Positions 469-13,397 of a stretch of DNA of 13,397 nucleotides are shown here, piece after piece. How positions within the stretch are numbered: position 1 is the stretch's first letter; every line of letters begins with the position of its first letter. Made by a program: the position numbers and the translations under genes. Source of the DNA: Rodentolepis nana (Eukaryota > Platyhelminthes > Cestoda > Cyclophyllidea > Hymenolepididae). The notes beneath the pieces were generated by a model, which did not search any database, was not told the origin of the DNA, and saw nothing but the letters and a program-made list of their open reading frames with translations. The stretch is taken from assembly GCA_900617975.1 (NCBI GenBank), contig UZAE01001426.1:1-13397 (forward strand), written 5' to 3'.

Positions 469-486
469 ACAATCGCCATATATATA
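469..486. repeat. Target-site duplication of Rz copy A, left
   Basis: This 18-bp direct repeat matches 795-812 with one mismatch (ACAATCGCC here, ACAATCCCC there, then TA repeats). The TA tail makes the inner edge uncertain by a few bases. Confidence 0.75.
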
Positions 487-794
487 TATTTATTTATATC
501 AAATGGCAGGCGTTTTGATGGTTATCATTAGCCCTTTAGTTGACTTCAGGCTTCACAGAGGGGAAGGAACATCAAATTGAAAAAAGTCGAGAGGAGGGGA
601 ACTGAAGAGTGTTTCAAAAACGAAGGTTGAAAATTTAGATAAAAGGTGAGGTGAGTACTGTGAAAGTGGTCGAATATGTCGTACAGGGGGGGGGCTTGGT
701 AGTTTGAAGTCAACTGCCGGTTAAAAGACTTTTTTGCCGTATGAGTATACGGTGCTCAGGGTGCACCACATGGAGGTAAGTCTATCGCACACCC
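487..794 (-). mobile_element. SINE-like retroposon, Rz element copy A
   Basis: This is a 308-bp copy read on the minus strand. It begins at 794 with GGGTGTGCGATAG and ends at 487 with the tail GATATAAATAAATA. The order is: ribozyme-like head, a block with GTTGACTTC, a pyrimidine-rich middle, a block with GGCTTCA/TGAAGTCAAC, then an AT tail containing AATAAA. It is flanked by an 18-bp target-site duplication with one mismatch. It differs from D and F by one fewer G at the start, loss of about 8 bp in the GTTGACTTCTGACTTCA block, and a G7 tract. It has no coding capacity. The duplications show retroposition; the reverse transcriptase donor is not visible in the window. Confidence 0.9.
724..794 (-). 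ncRNA. HDV-like ribozyme head of copy A, decayed
   Basis: Read on the minus strand, P1 can form between GGGUGU (794-789) and GCACCC. P2 starts as AUAGACUU but its partner reads AAGUCUUU, giving a mismatch. P3 is ACC/GGU, and the P4 hairpin CGUAU/AUACG is intact. The catalytic C is the complement of 736 in GCAAA. The joining segment between P1 and P4, which is GGGCAA in D and F, reads GAGCAC here. One G is missing at the cleavage end. The fold is recognisable, but these changes should reduce or abolish activity. Confidence 0.65.
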
Positions 795-812
795 ACAATC
801 CCCATATATATA
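795..812. repeat. Target-site duplication of Rz copy A, right
   Basis: This is the partner of 469-486 (17 of 18 identical). It abuts the first nucleotide of the element, which is also the predicted ribozyme cleavage position. Confidence 0.75.
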
Positions 813-4650: not shown

Positions 4651-4691
4651 TTTGTGCGCGATAGACATATCTCTACGTAGTTCTCCCTGAC
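4651..4691 (+). ncRNA. Remnant of HDV-like ribozyme, 5' half only
   Basis: The P1 5' strand, P2 5' strand, P3 and loop region can be aligned to copies D and F with many substitutions. The joining segment, P4, catalytic C and P2 3' strand are deleted. It cannot fold as a ribozyme, but it shows that this fragment began at the same nucleotide as the other copies. Confidence 0.5.
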
Positions 4692-4997
4692 AGTTGACTT
4701 CTGACTTTAAACTACCATGAGCCGACTGCATGTCATATTCGTCTACTTCTACAGTACTCACCTCACCTTACTTTTTTCTCTACCTTTAGGTCTGTCTTTT
4801 TACTTCTGAAAATCATTCTTCTGTTCGCCTTCTCTACATTTTATAATTTCGATGTTCCTCTCCCCTGTGAAGCCCAGTGACTGCCTCTTTTACATCTGTG
4901 GATCACTATTTTGTTCCCCACCTCTCGACTTTTGTAACACTAATGTTCTTCTCTTCTGTGAAGCCGAAGTCAACTAAAGGACTAATGATAACAATAA
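4651..4997 (+). mobile_element. Rz element copy B, left rearranged part
   Basis: This part matches the element from its first nucleotides (degenerate TTTGTGCGCGATAGAC) through GTTGACTTCTGAC, the CAGTACTCACCTCACC block and the pyrimidine tract. At about 4873 (GTGAAGCCC) it jumps back and repeats the pyrimidine-to-TGAAG section (4874-4992). It then stops at GATAAC without the usual tail. About 36 nt of the head, corresponding to P4, the catalytic C and the P2 3' strand, are deleted between CCCTG and ACAGTTGAC near 4690. I found no target-site duplication. It reads as at least two joined fragments: an older head-bearing piece and a younger piece matching the inverted right part. Confidence 0.8.
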
Positions 4998-5145
4998 TTT
5001 GTTTATATCAAATGGTAGACTGTATGATAGTTATCATTAGTCCTTTAGTTGACTTCGGCTTCACAGAAGAGAAGAACATCAATGTTACAAAGGTCGAGAG
5101 GTGAACAGAATAGTGATCCAAAGATGTAAAAGAGGCAGACACTGG
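4874..5145. repeat. Large inverted repeat (fold-back) within copy B
   Basis: The left arm 4874-4992 and right arm 5030-5145 are reverse complements at about 94%. The innermost 50 bp (4943-4992 against 5030-5079) are identical, with a 37-nt spacer (4993-5029). Both arms share private variants not found in other copies, such as GCCGAAGTC and AAAGGACTAATG, so they derive from the same parent sequence and not from two random insertions. A transcript would form a long double-stranded hairpin. Confidence 0.92.
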
Positions 5146-5279
5146 CTGAGAAATAATGAGGTGAGTACTGCGGAAGTGATCAAATAAGCCATACAGTGGG
5201 GTCATGGTAATTCGAAGTCAGAAGTCAACTGTCGGTTTATAGACTTTTTTGCCATATGAACACACGTTGCCCAGGGTGC
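4998..5279 (-). mobile_element. Rz element copy B, right inverted, 5'-truncated part
   Basis: Read on the minus strand, this part runs from GCACCCTGGGCAACG (5279) to the 3' tail GATATAAAC near 4998. It lacks the first 31 nt of the element (P1, P2 and P3 5' strands). Such 5' truncation is typical of incomplete reverse transcription in LINE/SINE insertions. It retains the CAGTACTCACCTCA block and a pyrimidine section shorter than in the other copies. No flanking duplication was found. Confidence 0.85.
5240..5279 (-). ncRNA. Remnant of HDV-like ribozyme, 3' half only
   Basis: Read on the minus strand, the P1 3' strand GCACCCU, joining GGGCAA, P4, GCAAA and the P2 3' strand AAGUCUAU are all present, but their 5' partners are absent. 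P4 reads CGUGU/AUAUG. It differs from the D and F stem at two paired positions, yet every pair is kept through G-U wobbles. The catalytic C is the complement of 5251. As a truncated copy it cannot cleave. Confidence 0.6.
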
Positions 5280-6785
5280 AAAAATACTCATTGTGATCAG
5301 TTATCAAGAAAGGCATTTGGTTCGAAATATCATTACTAGCATTATAGAAATGTGATTTAATTAATCTATATTGGTTTATTTTTATTCCCTGGGATTGATA
5401 GAATTATGATATCGATTTTCCTATTCTTCCTACTTTGGCTATTTTCACAAACTTTCAATTATTATTGCCCATAACAAAGGGAGCACTTTTAGAAAATTTA
5501 TTTGCAGAAAGTCATCTGAAAAAGAGAATTACGAGCCAAGATTAATGAGGTTTAAAACAGGGGTGATGTCCAAGTAGAGGTGGGTAATGACTTGACATCA
5601 GCTCCGTTGAGTTGTCAAATTGTTTTCAAAAAGAGCAGAATTCCCACTTTGATATCATAATGTTCAATCTTCATCATTTGCCTTAGAGGTCTATACTTGA
5701 GATTATAGCCATGATATTCAGATTACCTTAACGGGTTGATCCACTCATTTTCCATATCTGTATCACGATGTTAATTTAAGTCAATTTCAGAAAGTGTTTT
5801 GGCCTAAGTGAAGCAATATCCCATTGTTTACTTTTAAGCAACTTACTATTGTTTTATTTGTTATCACATTACATAAGAATAAGGCAGTTTCTAGTGGGAC
5901 CCAAATATCATTAACTGAATTTACCTAAAGATTAATGCCATGTGCTATACAATTGTCATGATGACAATATAATAATGACTATTTTTTGGATATTTTCACG
6001 TTGAAGAAACAGATATTTCATTTTACGCTAATAAGAATTACGAAAGAGAGAGTTTCAGAAAAATTGCATTGAGTTCTCAGTAGTTTTACTTTCCTGCTGG
6101 TCGGAGTATCAGCTTAAAAATTATACAAGTAATGTGTGACTTGTTTTTTTTTAAATTCTAGCATTTATCTAAATCTCCTTTATGAGTTTTTTAGGTGTAA
6201 AATCGATTTTTGCTTTATTTTTTTGGTTTCGAATCACAGTATTTTTTATTTAAAAATGACTATTATAAATTTTAATTAGTGACTTCGGGGATTTTCATAA
6301 GTTGCAGTTCCAGTATTTCATAAAGCAATAAATTGAATTACCACTGCCATATTTTCACTTATTAGCAAGCAGACTGGCAATACGAAAACGTTTTTTTGCA
6401 TCATTTCTTTTTTAAAATAACATTTCTTTCCATTTTACCGAAATCCTTTTATAGGATAAATCATCAAAGGGTGTTTTACCTTTCATGTGTTCCATTTATA
6501 TATACAGCATGCGCTTACGCTAACTTGTAATGGAAATTATTCTTAAACACAACCGAGAGACAATTATTTCGTTTAATTTCAATCTAAATTGGGGACATTT
6601 TCCTGCTTTATTTGTTTTGGTTGTAGAAAGTAGGGCACTCTAACGGATTGCTAAATTTGGGAGCATTGACTATACTCAGTAATCACTGTGTCTGATTCTC
6701 CTATGTTTATAAAGACTCCCGGAATTAGCAAGCCTACCGCAAAGCTATAGATGTATGATGCGGAACCCGTTTATCTTTGAACATA

Positions 6786-7539: not shown

Positions 7540-7553
7540 ATCAAGATTAAAAT
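7540..7553. repeat. Target-site duplication of Rz copy C, left
   Basis: ATCAAGATTAAAAT is identical over 14 bp to 7911-7924. Confidence 0.93.
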
Positions 7554-7797
7554 TATTTATATCAAATGGCAGGCGTTTTGACAGTTATCGTTAACCCTTC
7601 AGTTGACTTCAGGCTTCACAGAGGGGATGGAACATCAAAGTGAAAAAAGTCAAGTTGGTTGGGGGAACAGAACAGTATTTCAGAGATGTAAAAGAGACAG
7701 ATACAAAGGTAGAAAAAAGATGATGTCAGTACTGTGGTAGTAGTCGAATATGACATAAAGTGAGGTGATGGTTGTTTGAAGTCAGAAGTCAACTGCC

Positions 7798-7910
7798 AGT
7801 TAATAGACCTTTTTGTCGTATGAGTATATGTTGCCCGGAGTGTACCACATGGTCGATGAGTATATGTTGCCCGGAGTGTACCACATGGAGGTAAGTCTAT
7901 CGCACATCCC
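7798..7910 (-). ncRNA. HDV-like ribozyme head of copy C, interrupted by a duplication
   Basis: On the minus strand the order is P1 5' strand (GGGAUGU), P2 AUAGACUU, P3 ACC and the UCC loop. The segment from the P3 3' strand through half of P4 then appears twice with a 36-nt period. After it come the rest of P4, ACAAA (catalytic C opposite 7815) and a P2 partner with an inserted G. P1 contains an A-C mismatch. The second unit could in principle be looped out, but the copy is probably inactive. Confidence 0.6.
7820..7888. repeat. 36-bp tandem duplication inside the ribozyme of copy C
   Basis: The 33-nt unit beginning ATGAGTATATGTTGCCC occurs at 7820-7852 and again at 7856-7888 without a mismatch, separated by TCG. 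The two units are identical while the element differs from its relatives at many positions, so the duplication is recent relative to those changes. Confidence 0.97.
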
Positions 7911-10701: not shown

Positions 10702-10773
10702 GGGGTGTGCGATAGACTTACATCCACGTGGTGCACCCTGGGCAACGTATACTCATACGGCAAAATAGTCTAT
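10702..10773 (+). ncRNA. HDV-like self-cleaving ribozyme of copy D
   Basis: P1 pairs GGGGUGU (10702-10708) with GCACCCU (10733-10739), 7 bp with G-U at the cleavage end. P2 is AUAGACU (10712-10718) with AGUCUAU (10767-10773). P3 is ACA/GGU (10720-10722 with 10730-10732; one A-G mismatch) around the 7-nt loop UCCACGU. The loop's CC can pair with GG at 10740-10741 to form P1.1. GGGCAA leads into P4, CGUAU-ACUC-AUACG (10746-10759). The joining segment GCAAAAU holds the catalytic C at 10761. The strand order and lengths match the HDV-like fold known from R2-type and other non-LTR retrotransposons. Cleavage is predicted between 10701 and 10702. The A-G mismatch in P3 and one extra base before P2 are the only blemishes. 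Confidence 0.85.
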
Positions 10774-11020
10774 TTATCGGCAGGTGACTTCTGACTTCAA
10801 ACTACCATGACCCTACTGTATGTCATATTCAATCACTTCCACCATACTTATCCTACCTTTTCTCTGCCTTTGTATCTGTCTGTCTTTTTAACATCTTTAA
10901 ACACTCTTCTGTTCACCCCCTTGACTTTTTTCGATTTGATGTTCCTCCCCTCTATGATGCCTGCCGTCAACTAAAGGGTTAATGATAACAATCATAAAGC
11001 CTACCATTTGATATAAATAA
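10702..11020 (+). mobile_element. SINE-like retroposon, Rz element copy D (full length)
   Basis: This 319-bp copy is the best reference in the window. It has a full head, an exact 16-bp target-site duplication and the tail GATATAAATAA; AATAAA is completed by the first base of the duplication. Element order is: ribozyme head (10702-10773), GTGACTTCTGACTTCA block (10784-10799), pyrimidine-rich middle (about 10855-10960), GTCAACTAAAGG block and AT tail. No tRNA-, 5S- or 7SL-like promoter is evident. Its transcription is therefore inferred to come from flanking promoters, and its mobilisation from an unseen LINE. The open frames at 10581-10763 and 10897-11094 cross the element and are not genes. 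Confidence 0.95.
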
Positions 11021-11036
11021 ATTTTCATCCCGAATT
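11021..11036. repeat. Target-site duplication of Rz copy D, right
   Basis: This is the exact 16-bp partner of 10686-10701, directly after the AT tail. Confidence 0.96.
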
Positions 11037-11673: not shown

Positions 11674-11744
11674 GGGGTTTGTGATAGACTTACCTCCACG
11701 TGGTGCACCTAGGGCAACGTATAATCCTACGGCAAATTGTCTCT
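11674..11744 (+). ncRNA. HDV-like ribozyme head of copy E, decayed
   Basis: The UCC loop, P3 ACC/GGU (fully paired here), GGGCAA joining segment and GCAAA with the catalytic C at 11733 are preserved. P1 (GGGGUUU against GCACCUA) has at least two mismatches. P4 (CGUAU/CUACG) has one. The P2 partner reads UUGUCUCU and pairs only partly. The copy is probably inactive, but it retains the family's C-G pair in P3 that D and F have lost. Confidence 0.65.
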
Positions 11745-11837
11745 TAACTGGCGGTTGACTTCTCACTTCAAACTACTTTCATCTCACTCTATGCCATATT
11801 CGTCCATTTTCACAGTACTCTCCCCACCTTTTTTCTA

Positions 11838-11952
11838 CCTTTGTGTCTGTCTGTCTCTTTTACATCTCATATTGCCTTTTCTCTGCCTTTGTGTCTGTCT
11901 GTCTCTTTTACATACTTTTTTCTACCTTTGTGTCTGTCTGTCTCTTTTACAT
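11838..11952 (+). repeat. Threefold repeat of pyrimidine block in copy E
   Basis: A 28-nt core starting CCTTTGTGTCTGTCTGTCTC occurs without change at 11838-11865, 11886-11913 and 11925-11952. The start-to-start spacings are 48 and 39 nt. Other copies have one such block. The inner (TCTG)n run and the identical cores point to slippage or unequal exchange. Confidence 0.96.
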
Positions 11953-12098
11953 CTTTGAAACATTCTTCTGCCCCCCCCCCTTCCCTCTCGACTTTTTTTC
12001 CACTTTGATGTTCCTTCTCCTCTCTGTGAAGCCTGAAGTCAACTAAAGGGCTAATGATAACCATCAAGACGCCTGCCATTGGATATAAATAAATAGAA

Positions 12099-12112: not shown

Positions 12113-13141
12113 TGGAAAAAACGCTAGAGGGCTTTTATGGGTTCCGAAAGTTAAGGATTTCCATTTTCTTTTTGAAAAGTTAGTCAAAAAATATGTCACG
12201 CTCATTTTTTGTAGAGAATGTTTATTTATTGAAAATTCATCTTTCACTGGTGCTTGGTTCAAGAAGTTGGCACTAAATATTCGCTTATGAAATCGCAATG
12301 TGATATCGCCAATTAAAAAGTCAATATCTCCTTTTTGCGTATCTGTATGCACTCAAGAGTTTTTTGTTCAAGGCTTATTTAACTTCCAGTTCAGTCGGCC
12401 GCATTAGTCGCAAATTCAAGTAGCTTTAGCCAGTCAACATCTCCAAAATTCAAGATAAGGTCGGGGATGTGTCAACACCCCGTCCCCCCCCCCTTATTTA
12501 AATAAGACCAATTTTATCTACGTAATTCCTCTGATCAAAAGTATCTTATTGTTGTTTTGACGAGATTAAACAAATGCTTTCGAATACGATCCACCATTTT
12601 TTTCGAGAAAACGATAAACTCAAAGTTGCAACCAAATATTCTCAAAACAAGTGTTAGTCGGACAAACCCCCCTCCTCCCCCCCCCCACACACACAAATTT
12701 CTCAATTACTGGGGGGGTCTGCTAATTGGGTTCAGGACAAAATTGACGGACTTCGGTCTCTCTTACTCCTTCGTAAACTTACTTTCATAGGTTTTTATTT
12801 TTCTCAATTTTTTGTTAATAGATCTGCTATTAGAACTCGCCGTTTAACTGGTCTAAACTTAAGAAGCCCAGCTGTCAAATGAACAAAGACCAATCATAGT
12901 CATGACAATTTTTTCAAATTGAATAAAATCTGCATATACTCAATAAATTTCATGCTGAATAACAGTATTCAATCAAATTTTTCTGTGTGTCATTGTGGGT
13001 CCCTGGATTCCTCACGCCGAAGGCTATGTTTTGTAAGTCATTATTCTCTAACGTTCAACAACCCTTGTGACAAATGGGCAAGGTAAAAATTTGGACCCAA
13101 GTGAATACAGGAGGGATGGCTAATGCTATATTTCAAGTGAA
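12113..13141. other. Spacer with C and G tracts, no gene recognised
   Basis: There is no convincing gene. The frame at 12557-12790 (plus, 77 codons) crosses a C-tract that gives a Pro/His run and has no recognised domain; the frame at 12107-12352 (minus) likewise. Structural items are a C10 run at 12484-12493 joined to the perfect palindrome CTTATTTAAATAAG (12493-12506), and a C-rich tract at 12667-12686 with a G7 run at 12711-12717. Confidence 0.55.
12667..12717. repeat. C-tract and G7 run able to form a hairpin
   Basis: A nearly pure C tract (12667-12686) is followed by ACACACACA and then seven G at 12711-12717. The C10 end (12677-12686) could pair with G7 across a 24-nt loop. This looks like simple-sequence DNA; I assign no function. 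Confidence 0.7.
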
Positions 13142-13213
13142 GGGGTGTGCGATAGACTTACATCCACGTGGTGCACCCTGGGCAACGTATACTCATACGG
13201 CAAAAAGTCTATT
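13142..13213 (+). ncRNA. HDV-like self-cleaving ribozyme of copy F (best preserved)
   Basis: P1: GGGGUGU (13142-13148) with GCACCCU (13173-13179), seven pairs closed by G-U at the cleavage site. P2: AUAGACUU (13152-13159) with AAGUCUAU (13205-13212), eight perfect pairs. P3: ACA/GGU (13160-13162 with 13170-13172), two pairs and an A-G mismatch. L3: UCCACGU (13163-13169), whose CC can form P1.1 with G13180-G13181. The joining GGGCAA precedes P4, a 5-bp hairpin with loop ACUC (13186-13199). J4/2 is GCAAA (13200-13204) with the catalytic C at 13201. All parts are in HDV-like order and of normal size. The fold is seen in the sequence; self-cleavage is inferred from the family. Confidence 0.87.
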
Positions 13214-13397
13214 AATTGGCAGTTAACTTCTGACTTCAAACTACCATCACCCCACTGTATGTCATATTCTACCACTTTCACAGAACTCACCTCACCTTTT
13301 TTCAACTTTCGTCTTTGAAATACTCTTCTTTCCCCCCCCCCTTTCGACTTTTTTTCACTTTCCCCTCTGTGAAGCCTGAAGTCAACTAAAGGGCTAA
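13142..13397 (+). mobile_element. SINE-like retroposon, Rz element copy F (cut by window end)
   Basis: The copy begins GGGGTGTGCGATAGAC at 13142 and is still in the element at the last base (GTCAACTAAAGGGCTAA). About 35 bp of tail and the right target-site duplication should lie just outside. The left duplication should end at 13141 in the sequence ATATTTCAAGTGAA. The pyrimidine middle is shorter than in D and includes a C11 tract. Internal inverted arms lie at 13222-13238 and 13370-13386 (14 of 17 complementary). Confidence 0.92.

What the first reader, a model, noticed from the sequence alone, without database searches (positions are those of the whole stretch)
13142..13213. HDV-like self-cleaving ribozyme at the 5' end of a short retroposon
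The first 72 nt fit the nested double pseudoknot of HDV-like ribozymes: P1 (7 bp, starting at nt 1, G-U at the cut site), P2 (8 bp), P3 with a 7-nt UCC loop, possible P1.1 (CC with GG), GGGCAA, P4 hairpin, and GCAAA with the catalytic C at 13201 followed by the NRA-type turn. Such ribozymes are known at the 5' ends of autonomous non-LTR retrotransposons (R2, some RTE, trypanosome L1Tc). A ribozyme-headed about 320-bp SINE-like family in an animal-type genome may be undescribed. The fold is seen directly; activity is inferred.
Basis: partly seen in the sequence, partly recalled or inferred. Interest (0 to 1): 0.93.

Follow-up and report, generated by a model that had tools for sequence, protein, structure and literature searches.

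The report
Ribozyme-headed SINE-like element in tapeworm
A short jumping element, present in thousands of copies in what is very probably the genome of the dwarf tapeworm, begins with a sequence that matches the fold of the self-cutting hepatitis-delta ribozyme and shares its head and tail with a longer jumping element that likely copies it; the ribozyme is predicted to cut the RNA exactly at the element's first base, a way of spreading that would need no promoter of its own.

Summary
Window 13142-13212 fits every helix of an HDV-like ribozyme, with one P3 mismatch (A13162/G13170); this copy scores below Rfam's gathering cut-off (34.4 of 44 bits), but sibling copies pass it (37 of 61 scored places). 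It heads a ~320-nt SINE-like family: 4,877 exact places of a 25-nt core, 18,628 with up to 3 mismatches, none for the reversed control. The genome matches the tapeworm Rodentolepis nana. Most elements start at ribozyme G1 and many are flanked by target-site duplications, typically 13-14 nt. New here: an APE-RT-RNase H LINE of the same genome carries the same ribozyme at its own 5' end and the same 3' tail. Between SINE and LINE consensus the ribozyme is conserved (5 of 72 positions differ), the next 25 nt are not (9 differ; p = 0.0012). Reading: a LINE-dependent short retroposon released from host transcripts by self-cleavage. Cleavage is untested. Close precedents are NARTc/RIME in trypanosomes and R2 SIDEs in Drosophila, so this is a new member of a known kind, unusual in host and abundance.

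The parts
13142..13212 (+). HDV-like ribozyme domain of the finding's copy (G1 = 13142)
   Evidence: RF02682 34.4 bits; own model 103.2 bits; the model was built from siblings and from this copy
13142..13148 (+). P1 5' strand, pairs with 13173-13179; predicted cut between 13141 and 13142
   Evidence: read directly
13152..13159 (+). P2 5' strand, pairs with 13205-13212 (pseudoknot)
   Evidence: read directly
13160..13172 (+). P3 (ACA/GGU, A13162/G13170 mismatched) and L3 UCCACGU
13180..13185 (+). GGGCAA: P1.1 partner GG and J1.1/4
13186..13199 (+). P4 hairpin CGUAU-ACUC-AUACG
13200..13204 (+). J4/2 GCAAA with the presumed catalytic C at 13201
   Evidence: C in 98% of 43 SINE heads
13128..13141 (+). 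5' target-site duplication ATATTTCAAGTGAA; the 3' copy is seen in L002 (C228), a second contig with the same 5' flank and an identical 256-nt element
13142..13397 (+). SINE-like copy 1, cut by the contig end before its tail is complete
11674..12096 (+). copy 2 with ribozyme head (RF02682 25.3 bits) and TSD ATATTAATTCAAAG
   Evidence: right end approximate
10702..11022 (+). copy 3 with ribozyme head (RF02682 33.9 bits) and TSD ATTTTCATCCCGAATT
   Evidence: right end approximate
485..795 (-). copy 4 with ribozyme head (RF02682 31.1 bits)
7548..7910 (-). copy 5; its ribozyme core is duplicated in tandem (36-nt unit, 7815-7888)
4994..5290 (-). copy 6, decayed head (own model 43.8 bits)
4651..4985 (+). 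copy 7, decayed head (own model 13.7 bits, E = 0.27)

Best explanation
This is one copy of an abundant short retroposon, in what is very probably the dwarf tapeworm Rodentolepis nana, whose first 71 nt have the sequence and pairing of an HDV-like self-cleaving ribozyme that likely cuts the RNA at the element's first base and would so free it from longer host transcripts. Shown by sequence: most elements begin at ribozyme G1, end in an AATAAA-type tail, and more than half of those tested have clear target-site duplications; a LINE of the same genome (APE endonuclease, reverse transcriptase, RNase H) has the same ribozyme at its 5' end and the same ~65-75-nt tail. Inferred: (1) the short element is read through by host polymerase, since no pol III promoter was found; (2) the nascent ribozyme cleaves 5' of G1; (3) the LINE protein binds the shared 3' tail and copies the RNA by target-primed reverse transcription; (4) copying to the cleaved 5' end gives the G1 boundary and carries the ribozyme into the next copy. 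Whether today's copies still cleave is not known.
For: Fold. 5' end: of 39 copies that had not been used to choose their locus, 28 begin at ribozyme nt 1-2, 3 at nt 3-10, 7 further in, 1 has no ribozyme similarity (the split into used and unused is by position and approximate). TSD: 34 of 60 copies with both ends have an exact repeat of 8 nt or more ending at or within 3 nt of the 5' boundary, against 1.2% of 3,540 mismatched pairs (one of the 34, in L070, lies in an AT repeat). LINE partner: shared tail downstream of RT in 11 of the 20 held loci of this LINE; all or part of the ribozyme at the LINE 5' end in 20 of 20 junctions fetched, 18 of them unrearranged; L055 joins ribozyme, 5' UTR and an APE-like start; one near-complete, broken copy runs ribozyme-APE-RT-RNase H-tail over ~4.1 kb (domains by Pfam in relatives). 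L046 has TATATTCCACAC on both sides of an inverted LINE 5' segment that begins inside the ribozyme, as a twin-primed LINE RNA with a ribozyme head would leave. Constraint: SINE and LINE consensus differ at 5 of 72 ribozyme positions but at 9 of the next 25, Fisher p = 0.0012.
Against: No cleavage, RNA or retrotransposition data. This copy is below the Rfam gathering score and has a P3 mismatch. None of the 20 LINE heads fetched passes the gathering score (best 40.3), and the LINE majority consensus has U/U at the closing P4 pair. No covariation above shuffles in the ribozyme or tail alignments. 26 of 60 copies lack an exact 8-nt TSD. A pol III promoter of unusual form is not excluded. The near-complete LINE copy of C2663 has G instead of the J4/2 C and broken frames.
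Confidence: 0.8

Rival explanations
1. The head is an internal promoter that starts transcription at G1 (as reported for trypanosomatid Pr77), with the ribozyme fold secondary or inherited.
For: G1 boundaries would also follow from a fixed transcription start; PMC4035085 (background section read) reports both promoter and ribozyme roles for Pr77.
Against: Constraint tracks the ribozyme domain and drops behind it (5 of 72 against 9 of 25); four of the five changes keep the pairing (P1 wobble U-G to C-G, one J1.1/4 base, two P4 loop bases), the fifth opens the P4 closing pair in the LINE majority. Of 43 SINE copies 1 has an A-box-like and 0 a B-box-like stretch; other promoter types were not tested.
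Confidence: 0.12
2. The ribozyme is a relic: active in the LINE ancestor, carried along in the short element and no longer needed.
For: The window copy has a P3 mismatch and is sub-threshold; copies show no covariation.
Against: The SINE consensus keeps every pair and the J4/2 C, and its good copies score higher than any LINE head fetched; the family multiplied to thousands with the head present.
Confidence: 0.07
3. A chance resemblance or satellite repeat rather than a retroposon with a ribozyme.
For: Some copies hold tandem repeats of the core.
Against: 0 descriptor hits in 2.0 Mb of shuffles (post hoc descriptor); dispersed copies with TSDs and tails; 37 of 61 scored places over an independent Rfam cut-off.
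Confidence: 0.01

Closest known systems
Trypanosomatid L1Tc/NARTc, ingi/RIME and SIDER (L1Tc/ingi clade, Pr77 ribozyme)
   Same: HDV-like ribozyme in the first 77 nt of both an APE-RT-RNase H LINE and its short non-autonomous partners (PMC4035085: abstract, background and phylogeny section read).
   Different: Different phylum; here a ~140-nt middle without a match in the LINE loci sits between LINE head and tail; no promoter role tested; LINE clade not established. Copy numbers were not compared.
R2 and R2/R1 SIDEs of Drosophila
   Same: 5' HDV-like ribozyme plus the 3' end of the autonomous element, moved by its TPRT machinery (PMC3414825: passages).
   Different: Those sit at the R2 and R1 sites of rDNA; here the flanks differ from copy to copy, TSDs are typically 13-14 nt, and the partner is an APE LINE with RNase H.
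Sm-alpha / Sj-alpha SINE-like elements of schistosomes
   Same: Flatworm SINE-like family in very high copy number that carries a self-cleaving ribozyme (PMC2770079: passages).
   Different: Hammerhead, not HDV-like; similarity to a tRNA-Gln reported in the same passages; a link to Penelope-like elements is from recall and a reference title.
Ribozyme-bearing LINEs R2, R4/Dong, baggins, RTE
   Same: HDV-like ribozyme at or near the 5' end of a non-LTR element (PMC3774820: passages).
   Different: None of the passages seen names a tapeworm element or a dispersed short partner.
Rfam RF02682 (F. prausnitzii HDV ribozyme)
   Same: Best-matching covariance model; sibling copies over its cut-off.
   Different: Bacterial; resemblance of fold and core, no claim of descent.

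Membership tests
HDV-like ribozymes | nested double pseudoknot P1, P1.1, P2, P3, P4 | tested here: met
   one P3 mismatch in this copy, ACC/GGU in the consensus
HDV-like ribozymes | covariance model above gathering score | tested here: inconclusive
   this copy 34.4 of 44 bits: not met; sibling copies up to 54.5, 37 of 61 scored over the cut-off: met
HDV-like ribozymes | catalytic C in J4/2 and CC/GG P1.1 | tested here: met
   C13201; consensus of 43 SINE and 18 LINE heads; which C is catalytic is from recall of HDV
HDV-like ribozymes | self-cleavage 5' of G1 | not testable with these tools
   needs RNA
SINE, wide sense (short LINE-dependent retroposon, usage of PMC4035085) | short, without ORF, dispersed, with TSDs and simple tail | tested here: met
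SINE, wide sense (short LINE-dependent retroposon, usage of PMC4035085) | 3' tail shared with a LINE of the same genome | tested here: met
SINE, strict sense (pol III transcribed, usage of PMC3414825) | pol III promoter (A and B box) | tested here: not met
   of 43 copies 1 has an A-box-like and 0 a B-box-like stretch; no tRNA in the window
SIDE / NARTc-type element | 5' and 3' ends of the LINE with the coding part lost | tested here: met
   head ~1-97 and tail ~234-309 match the LINE; the ~140-nt middle had no match in the LINE loci held
L1Tc/ingi clade | APE, RT and RNase H coded by the LINE | tested here: met
   RVT_1 and RNase_H; PF14529 listed for P0088, whose contig length equals C2663; APE-like start read by eye in L055
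L1Tc/ingi clade | RT falls in the ingi clade in a tree | not tested
   no reference clade sequences were at hand; nearest named non-cestode hits are spider proteins

The most novel reading that the evidence does not exclude
A promoterless SINE class in an animal: perhaps more than ten thousand dispersed copies arose because each insertion into any transcribed region can cut its own RNA free with an HDV-like ribozyme and hand it to an APE LINE that uses the same trick; the ribozyme head would be the ancestral 5' hallmark that this LINE group shares with trypanosomatid L1Tc/ingi.
Probability: 0.35. Interest if true: 0.78.

Novelty: new member of a known kind. Interest (0 to 1): 0.6.

Why it matters
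[quoted passage not shown] If the ribozyme works, it explains how a SINE-like element without a recognisable pol III promoter can become so common, and the pair allows direct tests of self-cleavage, shared-tail recognition and TPRT. It would also mean that many host transcripts carry a self-cleaving site. Searches that found no print of it: self-cleaving ribozyme, hepatitis delta virus, tapeworm: 0 papers; HDV-like ribozyme with Platyhelminthes: 1 paper, on R2, passages seen; Hymenolepis, SINE, retrotransposon: 22 papers, 15 listed, of which I looked into one, PMC7653826, passages; it leaves 14.8% of the H. microstoma repetitive sequence unclassified; HDV-like ribozyme, SINE, retrotransposon: 6 papers, none with tapeworm in title or abstract start. 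Repbase and most subscription papers, including Ruminski et al. 2011, could not be checked.

Tried and rejected
Of its 30 loci printed, I read 29 by eye as the same element; the stretch printed for L069 missed the match; so no second ribozyme family was seen, but only 61 of 25,212 candidates were scored. Exact core pattern in viral and prokaryote contigs: 0 and 0. Nested energy folding is uninformative for a pseudoknot. Covariation within the family: none above shuffles. Rejected: MIR7723 at 4920-5102, which is two SINE tails facing each other. Rejected: satellite or chance (third rival). Not resolved: the LINE's clade. A first version of the constraint test compared nt 73-110 (16 of 38 differ, p = 1.8e-5); since the likeness of SINE and LINE fades near nt 97, that count is inflated, and one search replaces it (9 of 25).

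Rows dropped before counts: the TSD test left out L001, L010, L015, L028 as repeats of other loci and kept copies with a head from nt 1-2, a recognisable tail and long enough flanks (60). The head consensus left out L102 (rearranged) and L106 (truncated) and took SINE heads by a motif that itself asks for 17 head positions and GGGCAACGTAT, so its per-position agreement is biased, without that motif, gives the same consensus for nt 1-72. LINE analysis used 20 of the 30 RT loci; the other 10 were taken as LTR-type from match length, six of them read by eye. Twenty of the 40 scored LINE 5' ends were fetched. Alignment A1 used 20 of 41 distinct heads, picked by me for variety. Copies in L061-L090 were not checked for genome overlap with each other.

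Full report
What is there. Window 13142-13212 reads as a complete HDV-like double pseudoknot: P1 7 bp from G13142, P2 8 bp, P3 with a 7-nt loop UCCACGU, CC/GG for P1.1, GGGCAA, a 5-bp P4, and GCAAA with C13201. One flaw: the third P3 pair is A13162/G13170, where the family consensus has C-G. Rfam finds nothing at gathering level in the window. Below it, RF02682 matches four copies in the window at 34.4, 33.9, 31.1 and 25.3 bits, and RF00094 three at 29.1, 27.6 and 23.9. A descriptor of the whole pseudoknot, written after seeing this fold and allowing one P3 mismatch, hits the window once, at 13142, and never in 75 shuffles, 2,009,550 strand-bases; it misses the six other copies of the window. 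Nested folding energy is no better than shuffled, which says little about a pseudoknot.

The family. The window holds seven copies of one element in both orientations. The window is a contig of a 107.1-Mb assembly that is held unnamed. A 25-nt ribozyme core occurs there exactly 4,877 times, 0 for the pattern read backwards, and 18,628 times with up to 3 mismatches, again 0 for the control. These counts include the tandem cores described below, and the second also LINE heads, so they are not counts of elements. Of ten loci given (of 30 held), seven pass the RF02682 gathering score; genome-wide, 37 of 61 scored places do, out of 25,212 first-look candidates, with 0 of 14 control genomes ringing. 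Tandem duplications of the core, mostly 36-43 nt per unit, occur in some copies.

Whose genome. The best named protein matches of the LINE reverse transcriptase are from Rodentolepis nana and Hymenolepis microstoma, and the contig lengths given for three R. nana proteins (16117, 24280, 40446) equal those of C4190, C403 and C2663 of this assembly. I take it to be R. nana, the dwarf tapeworm (Cestoda, Hymenolepididae). This is an inference.

Boundaries. The elements begin at ribozyme G1 and end in a tail CCATTTGATATAAATAAATAAA or close to it, often followed by a repeat of the 5' flank. Of 39 copies that had not been used to select their locus, 28 begin at nt 1-2, 3 at nt 3-10, 7 further in and 1 shows no ribozyme (the split is approximate). 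Of 60 copies with both ends, 34 have an exact duplication of at least 8 nt, most often 13-14, against 1.2% of 3,540 mismatched flank pairs; mean 9.5 against 3.8 nt. This is the mark of target-primed reverse transcription. Of 43 copies, 1 has an A-box-like and 0 a B-box-like stretch; no tRNA was found in the window.

The partner. Of 150 reverse transcriptase matches scored (of 460 candidates), 30 loci were held. Twenty belong to one LINE, and in 11 of these the SINE's last ~65-75 nt recur downstream of the RT without the SINE body. In L055 the SINE's nt 5-89 stand upstream of the same LINE, followed about 80 nt later by a frame LQILQWNVGGM that looks like the start of an APE endonuclease (read by eye, motif recalled; the 43-residue piece has no Pfam match). 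A search with the stretch behind the ribozyme gave 40 scored LINE 5' ends of 571 candidates. Twenty junctions were fetched. All 20 match the ribozyme model made from SINE copies (L106 only in part, L102 rearranged); of the other 18, 15 begin with GGGG and 3 with GGG, and the flanks before them look unrelated by eye. Fourteen of 20 match RF02682 at E 0.01 or better, none above its gathering score. A LINE-type core occurs exactly 474 times, 0 for the control. One contig, C2663, holds a near-complete copy of about 4.1 kb: a ribozyme head without its first three G and with G for the J4/2 C, an APE frame, RT, RNase H (by eye) and tail, with stops and frameshifts. In L046 TATATTCCACAC flanks an inverted LINE 5' segment, starting inside the ribozyme, joined to the LINE's 3' part; this is what twin priming on a ribozyme-headed RNA would leave.

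Constraint. Consensus heads of 43 SINE and 18 LINE copies differ at 5 of 72 ribozyme positions and at 9 of the next 25, Fisher p = 0.0012. The five are nt 7 (P1, U-G to C-G), nt 41 (J1.1/4), nt 50 and 51 (P4 loop) and nt 54, which leaves U/U at the closing P4 pair of the LINE majority. Within the SINE family copies show no covariation above shuffles, as dead insertions should. The shared tail can form a GGC/GCC-closed hairpin in most of 18 tails, again without covariation above shuffles.

How it likely works. The short element keeps what the LINE needs: a head that cuts the RNA free and a tail that the LINE protein recognises. Host transcription through an insertion would yield an RNA that cleaves itself 5' of G1; the LINE protein would prime on the tail at a nick and copy up to the cleaved end. 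The G1 boundary and the TSDs are shown; transcription, cleavage and tail recognition are inferred.

What is known. In trypanosomatids L1Tc and ingi carry such a ribozyme in Pr77 together with their short partners NARTc, RIME and SIDER (PMC4035085: abstract, background and phylogeny section read). [quoted passage not shown] R2, R4/Dong, baggins, RTE and L1Tc are named as ribozyme bearers (PMC3774820: passages). Schistosome Sm-alpha SINE-like elements bear a hammerhead, with some 38,500 candidates in S. mansoni (PMC2770079: passages). For tapeworms I found no such report, within an open-licence library. So the kind is known; this family and host appear new. Whether the LINE belongs to the ingi clade was not tested.

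Noticed in passing
L112 (C20:53150-54450), L113 (C26:47000-47900), window 7815-7888: Some copies carry tandem duplications of the ribozyme core (mostly 36-43 nt per unit, joining the 3' side of P4 to the P3/L3 stretch), with 14 cores in L112; possibly repeated template jumps of the reverse transcriptase on the folded head.
   Followed up: partly
window 4920-5102: Rfam MIR7723 match at 78 bits (cut-off 200) is a hairpin made of two SINE 3' ends facing each other, not a microRNA gene.
   Followed up: yes
L002 (C228:347-602) and window 13101-13397: The window's last element and its printed 40-nt 5' flank recur identically on a second contig, where the element is complete; likely overlapping or allelic contigs of the assembly.
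   Followed up: partly
SINE positions ~98-233: The CT-rich middle of the element has no match in the LINE loci held; its origin is unknown. It also forms ~40-nt tandem repeats in some copies (L112; window 11826-11956).
   Followed up: no
L033, L034, L036, L039, L040, L058: LTR-type (Gypsy-like by eye) reverse transcriptases in the same genome, some in long open frames (1109 aa in L033).
   Followed up: no
L032 583-858: A SINE copy lies directly against LINE sequence upstream of the RT, inserted into the LINE or abutting a truncated copy.
   Followed up: no
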